Shown: one piece after another, positions 7,951 to 16,390 of the stretch
Layout: the number at the start of each line of letters is the position of its first letter
Position numbering within the stretch: position 1 is the first letter of the stretch
Assembly: GCF_012952295.1 (NCBI RefSeq)
Contig: NZ_JABBCH010000011.1
Span: forward strand, 1 to 64,000
Origin: Crystallibacter degradans
GTDB lineage: Bacteria; Actinomycetota; Actinomycetes; Actinomycetales; Micrococcaceae
Direction of reading: 5' to 3'
DNA: 64,000 nucleotides
Made by a program: the position numbers and the translations under genes
Notes under the pieces: model-generated
Database searches by the model: none
What the model saw: the letters and a program-made list of their open reading frames with translations, nothing else
Told to the model about the DNA's origin: nothing

Positions 7951-9333
7951 TTATTCTGCCTCCTGTGTCCGGGGCATCAGCGCTTGGATCGCATTGACCA
8001 GGATCCGGCAGGCAGACTCGGTCACGTCGGCTGTCACGTTCAGCGGCGGCAGCATGCGGACTACGCAGCCGTTCCTGCCGCCGGTTTCGAGGATCAGTCC
8101 GAGGCGAAGCACCTGTTCCTGGACGGAGACCGCGAGGTCGCCTGCAGGGCTGCCCGTTTCCGGGTCCTGCAGCTCGATGCCCCACATCAGTCCCCGGCCG
8201 CGGATCTCGCGTACCCACGGCAGCGACTCCAGCGGTGCAAGCAGGCCGGCTACCTGTTCCCCGCGTTCGCGGACGTTATCCAGCACTCCGTCCCGCTGGA
8301 CGATGCGGACGGCTTCTGCTCCGGTGGCGAATGCCAACTGGTTGCCGCGGAAGGTCCCTGTGTGGGCTGCGGGTGCCCAGGTATCAAGCGAAGCGTCGTA
8401 CATGATCAGGGCAACCGGCGTGCCGATGCCGCTCAACGCTTTCGAAGCGACGATGACGTCCGGTTCGATCCCGTACTGCTCGAACGCGAACCAAGTCCCG
8501 GTCCTGCCGCAGCCGGTCTGTACCTCGTCGACGATGAGCGGGATCTCCAGCTGCCGCGTCAGTTGCCGCAGCCGCTGGACGAACTCGAGCCGCGCCGGGA
8601 TCACTCCGCCTTCGCCCTGCACCATTTCAACGATGACCGCAGCCGGAAGCGGGATGCCGCCGTTGCCATCATGGAGGGAGTTCTCCAGGTAGCCGATGCA
8701 GTTGATCGCACAGGTCTCGGGGCGGAGGTTCACCGGGCACCGCGAGCAGTAGGAGTAGGGGAAGAAGTGCACTCCGGGCATGCCGTTGGCTACCGGCCGC
8801 TTTTGCTCGACAAGGCCGGTCAGGGCCATGGCAGCGGCGCTGCTGCCGTGGAAACCGCCCTGGAAGGAGATGATCTCGGAGCGTCCGGTCGCTGTCTTGC
8901 ACAGTTTGACCGCTGCGTCGACAGCATTGGCCCCGGTTGGTCCGCAGAAGTGCATCTTCATGCGGTCACGCATGCCCAGCGGAAGCATGGACAGCTGTGC
9001 TTCGATAAAGGCGTCCTTGACCGGCGTCGGAAAATCCAGTCCGTGGGCCAGCGTGCCCAGTTGCCTTCTGGCGATCTCGACGAGCTCCGGGTGGTTGTGA
9101 CCGAGCGAGAGGACGCCGGCACCGGCAAGGAAATCGATGAAGACATTCCCGTCGAGATCACGGACAAATGATCCTGCGGCGTCGGCGATCGCGATCGGCA
9201 GGTGCCGGGGATAGGCGCGCGCATTCGACTCGCGCTTTTCCTGGCGCGAGAGCAGTTCGGCCGATTTCGGCCCGGGCAACGGGCCCGAGACATGCGGGCG
9301 GGTGAAATTCACAGGTTCCATTTGCAAAGTCAT
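7951..9333 (-). CDS. 2,4-diaminobutyrate aminotransferase (class III PLP aminotransferase)
   Basis: This 460-residue class III aminotransferase resembles the diaminobutyrate-2-oxoglutarate transaminases (Dat/EctB group). Visible landmarks are AGAGVLSLGHNHPELVE, the PLP-phosphate loop MHFCGPTGANAVDAAVK, FQGGFHGSSAAAMALTG, AAVIVEMVQGEGGVIPA, and IVDEVQTGCGRTGTW followed by the PLP lysine in VIVASKALSGIG. The expected reaction is aspartate semialdehyde plus glutamate giving 2,4-diaminobutyrate plus 2-oxoglutarate. It starts 27 bases after the aspartate kinase gene, in the same direction, with GGAG before the ATG. No ectA or ectC is nearby, so ectoine is not the obvious product. The Pls-type synthetase upstream makes monomer supply for a diaminobutyrate polymer the likely job. 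Distinguishing Dat from lysine or ornithine transaminases rests on similarity judged by eye. Confidence 0.82.
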   Translation of the reverse strand: MTLQMEPVNFTRPHVSGPLPGPKSAELLSRQEKRESNARAYPRHLPIAIADAAGSFVRDLDGNVFIDFLAGAGVLSLGHNHPELVEIARRQLGTLAHGLDFPTPVKDAFIEAQLSMLPLGMRDRMKMHFCGPTGANAVDAAVKLCKTATGRSEIISFQGGFHGSSAAAMALTGLVEQKRPVANGMPGVHFFPYSYCSRCPVNLRPETCAINCIGYLENSLHDGNGGIPLPAAVIVEMVQGEGGVIPARLEFVQRLRQLTRQLEIPLIVDEVQTGCGRTGTWFAFEQYGIEPDVIVASKALSGIGTPVALIMYDASLDTWAPAAHTGTFRGNQLAFATGAEAVRIVQRDGVLDNVRERGEQVAGLLAPLESLPWVREIRGRGLMWGIELQDPETGSPAGDLAVSVQEQVLRLGLILETGGRNGCVVRMLPPLNVTADVTESACRILVNAIQALMPRTQEAE

Positions 9334-9360
9334 GATTGCTCCGATCGCAGGGCCAGGGTT

Positions 9361-15100: not shown

Positions 15101-16390
15101 GGTCCGGTAGATACGCGCTGACGGGTTATTCTCGATCCCGAGAAAATCGGGGATGAACGCCTTTTCGGTCAGGTCGTCGCGGTTCACGTAGCCTCGTGCC
15201 AGCCCTACGCCGGCCAGGCCGATTTCACCTGTTTCGCCCGGGCCAAGTGCCCGGTTCTCCTCCGGGTCAAGGATGACTGCAGTATAGGTCGGCAGCGGCA
15301 CTCCCAGCGTGACCGGACGGTCCGGATCAACAACGTTCCATGTTGCGGTGACAGTGGCTTCGGTCGGACCGTAAACGTTGAGGAAGCGAAGACCGGGCCG
15401 GTGCCAGCGCACGATCAGATCCCGAGGGCAGGCTTCCCCGGAGACCAGCAGGAACCGCAGATCCGGCAGCTCCTCTTCGATGGTGGCGAGCAAGGTCGGC
15501 ACGCAGCACAGCGCGGTGATCTGCTTCTGCGTCAGGAACGCTGAAAGTTCGGCCCCGAGCAGGCTCGACCCGCCGGGTTTGGGCACCAGGGTAGCCCCGG
15601 CCAGCCATGGAACCCAGATTTCCTCCACAGAGAAGTCGAAGGCCAGGGTCATGCCTTGGTAGACACGGTCCGAGGACCGGATCCCGTAGACGTCCGAGGC
15701 CACACGGACGAAGTTGCAGATGCTGGCATGGTCAACGGCCACGCCCTTGGGCCGGCCGGTCGAGCCGGAGGTGTAGATGATGTACGCCAGCTCGGTGGGT
15801 GTGCCCCAGTCCGACAAGTCGGTCAGGCGGGAGGATTCGCACCCGGCTATGTGCAGATGCTCGTGGTCGAGGCACATCACGGGAGCTGCGACTTCAGGCA
15901 GCAGGTCCTTCAGATGGGTGAGCGAGAGCACCATGGCAGCGTCGGCGTCCTCGACGATGTATTTCAACCGGTCGGAGGGAAACGCCGGATCCATCGGCAC
16001 ATACGCGGCACCGATCTTCAGTACGGCCAGCATGGCCGCATAGGCACGCCACGGCTGGTCGAACAGCAGAGCAATGCGGTCACCGGGGCGTGCTCCCAAC
16101 ACCAGCAAGTGGCGTGCGAGCTGGTTGGCGTGCTCGTCCAAGTGCTTATAGGTCAAACGGACATCCCCGGCATCAACTGCAAGCCGGGTGCCCAATCCCT
16201 GTATCCGGAGCTGGTCGCAACGGTCTTCAAAAAGCCGCTCCAACCGTTCACCCGGGCGCCAGCGGATGGAATGGTCAGGTGCATCGGACGTCAGAACGGC
16301 GCCCTCCCCCACACCCTCACTCGTGGCGATCCGGCCCTGAAGCTCCACCGGGCGGTTTGCGACCACGTCAGTTCTCGCCTTTTTCCTCAT
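12161..16390 (-). CDS. Pls-type membrane nonribosomal peptide synthetase (cationic poly-amino-acid synthetase)
   Basis: This 1409-residue protein is a single-module NRPS. An adenylation domain (residues about 50-545) shows A3 YIIYTSGSTGRPKG, A4 FDFSVEEIW, A5 NVYGPTEATVTAT, A7 YRTGDLGR, A8 GRIDTQVKIRGYRIEL and A10 SDKADRKKLP. A thiolation domain (about 560-630) carries the phosphopantetheine serine in DLGANSLL. The rest, from about 665, alternates membrane helices with three domains rich in hexapeptide-like beta-helix repeats (for example GKNVVIFSRTVPVCTDLITI). There is no condensation or thioesterase domain. This A-T-TM-C1-TM-C2-TM-C3 plan is that of epsilon-poly-L-lysine synthetase (Pls) and its relatives, which polymerise one basic amino acid iteratively at the membrane. 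By-eye alignment to GrsA suggests a pocket beginning D-F-E, with Glu at the 239 position as in basic-amino-acid pockets. The start at 16390 has a strong GGGAGGG; an ATG at 16453 has none. Neighbouring diaminobutyrate supply genes make poly-diaminobutyrate the best guess; poly-lysine is the alternative. Confidence 0.9.
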   Translation of the reverse strand: MRKKARTDVVANRPVELQGRIATSEGVGEGAVLTSDAPDHSIRWRPGERLERLFEDRCDQLRIQGLGTRLAVDAGDVRLTYKHLDEHANQLARHLLVLGARPGDRIALLFDQPWRAYAAMLAVLKIGAAYVPMDPAFPSDRLKYIVEDADAAMVLSLTHLKDLLPEVAAPVMCLDHEHLHIAGCESSRLTDLSDWGTPTELAYIIYTSGSTGRPKGVAVDHASICNFVRVASDVYGIRSSDRVYQGMTLAFDFSVEEIWVPWLAGATLVPKPGGSSLLGAELSAFLTQKQITALCCVPTLLATIEEELPDLRFLLVSGEACPRDLIVRWHRPGLRFLNVYGPTEATVTATWNVVDPDRPVTLGVPLPTYTAVILDPEENRALGPGETGEIGLAGVGLARGYVNRDDLTEKAFIPDFLGIENNPSARIYRTGDLGRINAEGEIEYFGRIDTQVKIRGYRIELTEIESVLLKAPGVAQAVVGTYEPAPGFVELVAYYTVRHDTADPDEQKIHEMLRKLLPGYMVPAYFERLEAIPMMASDKADRKKLPAPTNRRSLTGPDSYTAPAAGTEEALATQLGAVLGLERVSAEANFFEDLGANSLLLAHFSARVRKHTGLPPIAMQDVYQSPTVRQLAVVLDAAQSAADLEPAASTPPAAVPAGPLPGTGSFVLCGAIQLLIFLGYTTYAAFLLVFGFTWVSEGTSVIDMWVRSVGFGAVMFVALSIAPIMMKWILVGRWKPAEIPLWSMTYIRFWAVKTLTRANPLVMFVGSPLYILYLRALGAKIGKNVVIFSRTVPVCTDLITIGADTVIHKNSFFLGYRARSGAIETGPVTLGRNVLISEKTTLDIGSSMGDNTQLGHASSLQSSQSVPDGQTWHGSPAVPTNANYRTVEPASCTTRRRVIYSLLQLFNRFVLVVPAGLIGLAMLLPDYLESQHLQLDNPRFYLDVLASTVVLFATGLLTGLVIAFTVPRLLNLALKPDTVYPLYGVHFTIQRMIAGMTNVKLYRDIFGDSSYIVYFLQALGYDLGKVEQTGSNFGPEVAHETPYLSSVGSGTMVSDGLNIMNADFSSSSFRVSRVTIGERNFLGNDITFPLAARTGDNCLLATKVMVPIDGPIREGVGLLGSPPFEIPRIVDRDKEFDELKNEEIRKPLIKAKNKHNIVTMGLFLFVRWFLFFEATLLAAIAVTFYDDFGALAVGVATLAFLVVGILISVVAERSVLGFGRLKPQYCSIYDPYFWHHERLWKLLAVAPFSGTPFKSMIWRLLGVRVGKRLYDAGCDIPEKTLVSIGDDCALNEGTAIQSHSMEDGTFKSDYITLRDRCSLGVASFVNYAVTMRNGSTLLADSFLMKGGEVPENAVYGANPAREIRDSSVYLPSPVTLPRIPRHRAIRRMGLGRPTRDHRTNPGKHEGIPA

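What the first reader, a model, noticed from the sequence alone, without database searches (positions are those of the whole stretch)
7951..16390. Pls-type poly-cationic amino acid cluster, probably making poly-diaminobutyrate
A 1409-residue A-T-membrane synthetase with three tandem beta-helix-like domains (the epsilon-poly-lysine synthetase plan) sits with a dedicated aspartate kinase, a 2,4-diaminobutyrate aminotransferase and a SARP regulator. Seen: the domain order, the missing C and TE domains, tight kinase-aminotransferase spacing (27 bases). Known: Pls-type enzymes make homopolymers of basic amino acids; aspartokinase plus Dat yields diaminobutyrate. Inference: product is poly-2,4-diaminobutyric acid, an antimicrobial class with few described producers and, as far as I know, not established for this group. 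No ectA/ectC is present, arguing against ectoine.
Basis: partly seen in the sequence, partly recalled or inferred. Interest (0 to 1): 0.88.

Follow-up and report, generated by a model that had tools for sequence, protein, structure and literature searches.

The report
Likely poly-diaminobutyrate synthetase gene cluster
A soil actinobacterium carries a compact gene set that very probably links 2,4-diaminobutyrate units into a short cationic antimicrobial chain, a known kind of system but here with a polymer-making half from a separate, apparently untested branch of the enzyme family.

Summary
The window encodes a Pls/PosA-family A-T-membrane synthetase (12161-16390, -), an aspartate kinase, a Dat-family aminotransferase (27 bp apart) and a small SARP-like gene. 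The genome has one DAP-epimerase gene, hence no evident PddB-like racemase, so poly-L-Dab is favoured. Ectoine genes lie elsewhere (ectABCD, contig 37).

(2) The A domain is kin to those of racemase-coupled (PddA-like) enzymes, but the membrane/polymerisation domain belongs to a second deep lineage ("type II") shared with split carrier-membrane proteins; the two domains' histories conflict (AU p 2.9e-54). Indirect identity evidence places the characterised Dab/Dap synthetases in type I. (3) The genome also holds a 94% synthetase copy, a second dat-ask-SARP copy, a second diverged cluster and a split relative. Product, linkage and chirality are inferred.

The parts
12161..16390 (-). Pls/PosA-family synthetase (A-T-membrane), 1409 aa; pocket code DFECLSVVTK; type II polymerisation domain
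   Evidence: start
14744..16189 (-). adenylation domain (residues about 89-570 counted from the GTG at 16453); core motifs and Lys560 present
14495..14683 (-). carrier (T) domain, LGANS with Ser619
12311..14389 (-). membrane/polymerisation domain; residues invariant in alignments of 40 and 37 members include Gln1318, His1320, Glu1323
9361..10764 (-). cluster aspartate kinase, 467 aa (longest frame to 10800)
7951..9333 (-). diaminobutyrate--2-oxoglutarate aminotransferase family, 460 aa
11012..11737 (+). small SARP-type regulator (ORF open from 10763; likely start 11012 GTG or 11030 ATG), divergent from ask-dat
7944..11786 (.). precursor-supply module dat-ask-SARP, present again on contig 114 (95.6% over 3866 bp) without the synthetase beside it

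Best explanation
A gamma-poly-L-2,4-diaminobutyrate biosynthesis cluster. The dedicated aspartate kinase (perhaps less feedback-sensitive) plus the cell's own aspartate-semialdehyde dehydrogenase make aspartate semialdehyde; Dat transaminates it to L-Dab. The A domain adenylates L-Dab and loads it on the T domain; the membrane domain condenses aminoacyl-thioesters repeatedly through the side-chain amine, giving a short cationic homopolymer at or across the membrane. The SARP activates expression. Shown by sequence: domains, pocket code, neighbours, a single DAP-epimerase gene in the genome. Inferred: substrate, L configuration, gamma linkage, length, export, regulation, bioactivity.
For: Code DFECLSVVTK by alignment; the same procedure returns the published PosA code DMEHNGTVSK and the beta-lysine code DGESISVVNK (PMC10522769). 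Dab-type codes vs others: Dat neighbour (centres within 6.5 kb) 38/52 vs 0/76, aspartate kinase 29/52 vs 0/76; without 4 duplicates 36/49 vs 0/75 and 28/49 vs 0/75. The Dats beside Dab-code enzymes fall in two identity ranges to the window's (29 at 66-100%, 7 at 36-39%) and gene order varies, so the link probably arose more than once. In the genus, the >=92% kinase occurs in exactly the 3 of 10 genomes that have the full-length synthetase. The A domain groups with those of racemase-coupled PddA-like enzymes and DFEY rows. One DAP-epimerase gene in the genome; the two racemase-coupled relatives found read DFECLSCVSK, the window has V and T at the two differing positions.
Against: The Dab code changes only twice on the tree, so the contrast rests on few independent events (independent-pairs test: 2 pairs, no power). 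13 of 49 distinct Dab-code loci have no Dat nearby, including the window's own 94% copy. PDAP synthetase also has Phe at the second code position, and Patel & Gulick found PDAP and PDAB enzymes hard to separate by sequence. I found no code in the passages read that is labelled PDAB, so DFECLSVVTK was not matched to a tested Dab enzyme. The type II polymerisation domain has no characterised member that I found; linear gamma linkage is assumed by analogy.
Confidence: 0.74

Rival explanations
1. The enzyme makes poly-2,3-diaminopropionate or a mixed Dap/Dab polymer.
For: PDAP synthetase has Phe at the second code position (PMC10522769); DFEYxGTVTK rows are near in the A-domain tree.
Against: Window has C, S, V where those rows have Y, G, T; no OCD or PLP-lyase family among the flanking ORFs scanned, while Dat and aspartate kinase are there. 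No DFEY row has Dat or Ask. Weak point: the SbnB query also failed to hit the DFEY rows, so that these are Dap enzymes is itself not shown here.
Confidence: 0.08
2. It makes poly-D-Dab like Streptoalloteichus hindustanus PddA.
For: Dat and aspartate kinase partners are the same (PMC8225329).
Against: No DapF-like gene beside it and one DAP-epimerase gene in a 99.98%-complete genome; the same HMM did detect such a gene beside or within two relatives.
Confidence: 0.06
3. The product is Dab-containing but not a free linear homopolymer: the type II domain transfers Dab oligomers onto another molecule or makes a branched polymer.
For: Type II domains also occur in split carrier-membrane proteins beside separate A-T proteins and tailoring genes; a comb-like Dap polymer is known (reference title only).
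Against: The four-gene cluster has no second A domain or tailoring gene; the single-protein A-T-M plan equals Pls.
Confidence: 0.1
4. Epsilon-poly-lysine cluster (what a generic NAPAA label would suggest).
For: Same family and domain order.
Against: Lys-type enzymes read DAESIGTVxK; Phe instead of Ala at the chain-length position; Dat neighbour.
Confidence: 0.02

Closest known systems
pddABCD, gamma-poly-D-Dab cluster of Streptoalloteichus hindustanus (PMC8225329, abstract and passages)
   Same: Pls-like synthetase with dedicated Dat (PddC) and aspartate kinase (PddD)
   Different: No PddB racemase; code differs at two positions from the two racemase-coupled relatives found; polymerisation domain of the other deep lineage (inferred; the PddA sequence itself was not held)
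pldA-dat-ask, gamma-poly-L-Dab of Streptomyces celluloflavus (PMC8117764, Results and a Methods section)
   Same: Synthetase with dat and ask
   Different: PldA sequence not available; its published 33% identity to a poly-lysine enzyme matches type I rows (about 31-33%) and not the window (28%)
Pls, epsilon-poly-L-lysine synthetase (PDB 7WEW for its A domain)
   Same: A-T-membrane plan
   Different: Lys code; Lys-code actinobacterial enzymes are about 28% identical; no Dat beside Lys-code rows
PosA, delta-poly-L-ornithine synthetase (PMC10522769, sections read)
   Same: family and architecture; Asp and Glu pocket residues
   Different: Orn code DMEHNGTVSK; single-gene operon
Synthetase on Paenarthrobacter aurescens TC1 plasmid pTC1 (ABM10401.1)
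   Same: 90% identical, annotated only as putative non-ribosomal peptide synthetase
   Different: no dat-ask-SARP among the 39 annotated features around it; no match of 60% or more to the window's kinase in any plasmid record, and no Paenarthrobacter record among the Dat matches

Membership tests
Pls/PosA (cationic homo-poly-amino-acid synthetase) family | A and T domains followed by the TIGR02353 terminal domain | tested here: met
   724.1 bits vs 423.1 cut-off; AMP-binding and PP-binding over cut-offs
Pls/PosA (cationic homo-poly-amino-acid synthetase) family | six transmembrane helices in three pairs, no C or TE domain | tested here: met
   hydropathy plot only, and Pfam at E 0.001
Pls/PosA (cationic homo-poly-amino-acid synthetase) family | acidic pocket residues Asp and Glu for a diamino acid | tested here: met
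   D273 and E277
Pls/PosA (cationic homo-poly-amino-acid synthetase) family | product is an isopeptide homopolymer | not testable with these tools
   needs chemistry
poly-Dab clusters (pdd/pld) | dedicated Dat and aspartate kinase beside the synthetase | tested here: met
poly-Dab clusters (pdd/pld) | synthetase of the same sequence lineage as PddA/PldA | tested here: inconclusive
   A domain close to racemase-coupled relatives, membrane domain in another deep lineage; the two reference proteins were not available
poly-D-Dab (pdd) subtype | PddB-type DapF-like racemase coupled to the synthetase | tested here: not met
   none beside it; one DAP-epimerase gene in the genome
epsilon-poly-lysine (pls) clusters | Lys pocket code with Ala at the second position | tested here: not met
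   DFECLSVVTK
epsilon-poly-lysine (pls) clusters | PldII-type peptidase in operon | not tested
   no dedicated search made
ectoine operon | ectA and ectC with ectB | tested here: not met
   only the four named genes at 7951-16453; ectABCD lies on contig 37

The most novel reading that the evidence does not exclude
The window's enzyme belongs to a second, so far uncharacterised class of isopeptide-forming membrane polymerisation domain (type II) that has been combined separately with Dab-, Lys- and DFEY-code adenylation domains and with detached carrier arrays, and whose chemistry (linkage, acceptor or branching) differs from that of Pls.
Probability: 0.2. Interest if true: 0.72.

Novelty: new variant of a known kind. 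Interest (0 to 1): 0.5.

Why it matters
It extends Dab homopolymer biosynthesis, described for very few strains, to Micrococcaceae soil bacteria and, by the same code and neighbours, to many actinobacteria not known for this trait. It offers a simple rule (code DFE[CA]xSxV with Dat/Ask, plus or minus a racemase) to predict poly-Dab and its chirality, and it exposes a second deep lineage of the poorly understood polymerisation domain, useful for working out how that domain forms isopeptide bonds.

Tried and rejected
Ectoine: rejected, the operon is elsewhere. Poly-D-Dab: disfavoured. Poly-lysine: rejected on code. Independent-pairs statistics for code vs neighbours: no power, 2 pairs. An SbnB-type search of the window and 92 relatives gave only two weak hits, so it did not confirm the DFEY rows as Dap enzymes. 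The DapF query was a wrong-strand frame, replaced; the tblastn gave only three weak hits; an HMM built from five DapF proteins was used instead. Structure prediction of the membrane domain did not run, so no fold search was made. I could not obtain PldA (WP_110952768) or PddA (WP_083959783) and used published identities instead. Of 11 family/order loci given to as possible Lys references, 7 gave an alignment.

Of 130 loci, L085 (no synthetase) and L242 (code unreadable) were dropped from the 128. L254-L258 were fetched because of their Dat or kinase and are not in those counts. The group tested was chosen after the A-domain tree and the FastTree membrane tree had been seen, so its p-value is not that of a group named beforehand.
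Full report
WHAT IS THERE. On the minus strand lie a synthetase (12161-16390; 1409 aa from the ATG with a good ribosome site), an aspartate kinase (9361-10764) and a Dat-family aminotransferase (7951-9333) 27 bp behind it; a small SARP-like regulator (about 11012-11737) reads the other way from between kinase and synthetase. The synthetase has A, T and a TIGR02353 terminal domain and no C or TE domain by Pfam; hydropathy gives six hydrophobic stretches in three pairs. 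Carrier serine, A-domain lysine and core motifs are present. The Dat is over the general Dat model's cut-off but under two stricter ones.

WHERE IT IS. Nearest named relatives are in Arthrobacter sp. VKM Ac-2550 (92%) and on Paenarthrobacter aurescens TC1 plasmid pTC1 (90%), so the host is a Paenarthrobacter/Arthrobacter-type Micrococcaceae. Blocks of the window at about 12-42 kb match a region of pTC1 with copper, thiol-redox and cytochrome-biogenesis genes, in rearranged order.

SUBSTRATE. I read the ten pocket positions by alignment to the window's A domain, the positions having been placed by eye on GrsA motifs recalled from memory. The result is DFECLSVVTK. As a check, the same procedure gives DMEHNGTVSK for 15 loci, DGESISVVNK for 1 and DLED[LI]GTVVK for 11, codes printed or nearly so in PMC10522769 (sections 9-11). 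None of the passages I read prints a code for a tested poly-Dab enzyme. Among 128 loci with readable codes, DFE[CA][LI]SxV[TS] rows have a Dat-like gene (centres within 6.5 kb) in 38 of 52 and an aspartate kinase in 29 of 52; all other codes 0 of 76 and 0 of 76. Without 4 duplicates: 36 of 49 and 28 of 49, vs 0 of 75 and 0 of 75. The code changes only twice on the tree, so Fisher p-values would overstate the case; but Dat presence changes 9 times and kinase presence 11 times on that tree of 122 rows, the neighbours stand in different orders, and 7 of 36 Dats are 36-39% identical to the window's while 29 are 66-100%, which points to repeated recruitment. Thirteen of 49 distinct Dab-code loci lack a nearby Dat.

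WITHIN THE GENUS. 3 of 10 genomes have the full-length synthetase (E 1e-250 or better) and exactly those 3 have a kinase at 92% or more; each of the 10 also has a 52-56% kinase, taken as housekeeping. By hand, that pattern has a chance of 1 in 120. Synthetases without dat-ask beside them (contig 41 here; G002 at 4.53 Mb; G004 contig 16) are matched in number by kinase copies elsewhere in the same genome (contig 114 here, with dat and SARP; about 53 kb away in G002; contig 49 in G004). In G002 and G004 the genes beside those kinases were not looked at.

CHIRALITY. In Streptoalloteichus the D-polymer needs PddB, a DapF-like racemase coupled to pddA (PMC8225329, abstract and passages). A DapF HMM found such a gene in 2 of 130 loci (L248, L249; both DFECLSCVSK). 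The window's genome has a single DAP-epimerase gene. L-Dab is therefore predicted. A paper on adenylation control of chirality (Yamanaka 2020) was seen only as a title in a reference list.

PRECURSOR SUPPLY. At the positions that are T308 and T311 in the C. glutamicum kinase structure, the cluster kinase has K and V while the genome's housekeeping kinase has T and S. That changes there desensitise the enzyme is recalled, not looked up; reduced feedback is inference. The genome has ectABCD on contig 37, so the cluster Dat is not the ectoine enzyme.

TWO LINEAGES OF POLYMERISATION DOMAIN. Trees of 130 A domains and 131 membrane domains (FastTree) and of 38 rows each (IQ-TREE quick) disagree. In A, the window clade joins PddA-like, DFECLSAVTK and DFEY rows (25 rows, SH-aLRT 99). 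In the membrane domain the window clade sits with the split carrier-membrane proteins, across a branch of 1.3-1.4 changes per column from Lys-, Orn-, PddA-like and nearly all DFEY rows. Forcing the DFE rows together in the membrane domain is rejected (AU p 2.9e-54); forcing all type II carriers together in the A domain is rejected more mildly (p 0.0105): Lys-code (L077, L241) and one DFEY (L237) A domain also sit on type II. The groups were chosen after seeing trees, and long branches may share in this. The published identities of the C. variabile poly-lysine enzyme to the PDAP, poly-L-Dab and poly-D-Dab synthetases are 32, 33 and 31% (PMC8117764, Results); 7 Lys-code actinobacterial enzymes are on average 31-33% identical to 10 type I Dap/Dab-like rows but 28-29% to 5 type II rows. 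So the characterised Dab enzymes are probably type I and the window's lineage untested. This is indirect.

COPIES. Contig 41 has a 94% synthetase copy; contig 114 a 95.6% (DNA) dat-ask-SARP copy; contig 81 a separate cluster (Dat 38%, kinase 52%, synthetase 56%, same code); contig 59 a broken kinase, a SARP and the end of a synthetase.

LITERATURE. Searches (open-licence PMC only) listed no report of poly-Dab in this group. One paper says that all nine Antarctic Micrococcaceae/Dermatophilaceae genomes it studied contain NAPAA clusters (PMC11078813, passages); one Paenarthrobacter genome lists a NAPAA region whose nearest known cluster is given as stenothricin at 31% (PMC11719660, passages). 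Of PMC10522769 I read sections 4, 6, 8-11, 13 and part 1 of the references; of PMC4668381, PMC9606270 and PMC13206832 passages only.

VERDICT. Observation confirmed; poly-Dab inference supported, most likely the L form; a known kind of system with a variant polymerisation domain.

Noticed in passing
L040 (G000 contig 55) 249-8138; L046, L079-L084, L092: Split relative: one protein with four tandem carrier domains plus a type II membrane domain, next to a separate A-T protein and further genes; Pfam on the relatives L046 and L084 shows a TauD-type dioxygenase and an ornithine-cyclodeaminase-family gene, L081 and L084 also a PLP enzyme (SbnA-like). Suggests a Dap-using product. In one search all nine other genomes of the genus have a 47-49% match to this membrane domain.
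   Followed up: partly
L086 (G000 contig 59) about 8798-10751: Decayed remnant: broken aspartate kinase and the end of a synthetase, next to a SARP.
   Followed up: no
L044 (G004 contig 2) 5475-18353: A Lys-code synthetase (DAESIGTVIK) lies about 2 kb from a Dab-code dat-ask-synthetase cluster; the window's own genome shows no such full-length Lys-type enzyme.
   Followed up: partly
L248 5603-10432: The PddA-like synthetase and the DapF-like racemase match lie in one 1609-codon open frame, possibly a natural fusion.
   Followed up: no
window 32706-34229 and L084 11527-12981: HGSNAT-type membrane acyltransferase in the window and, separately, beside a split type II cluster; link unknown.
   Followed up: no
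window 31277-32506: ISAzo13-family transposase within the stretch that shares rearranged blocks with plasmid pTC1.
   Followed up: no
window 51441-54742: Ribonucleotide reductase small and large subunit genes side by side.
   Followed up: no
L094 (Skermanella mucosa plasmid pSM-2) 5583-11125: An alphaproteobacterial plasmid has a Dat gene directly before a synthetase with the same code DFECLSVVTK and no annotated aspartate kinase within about 7 kb; a multicopper oxidase gene is close, as in the window (2-544).
   Followed up: partly
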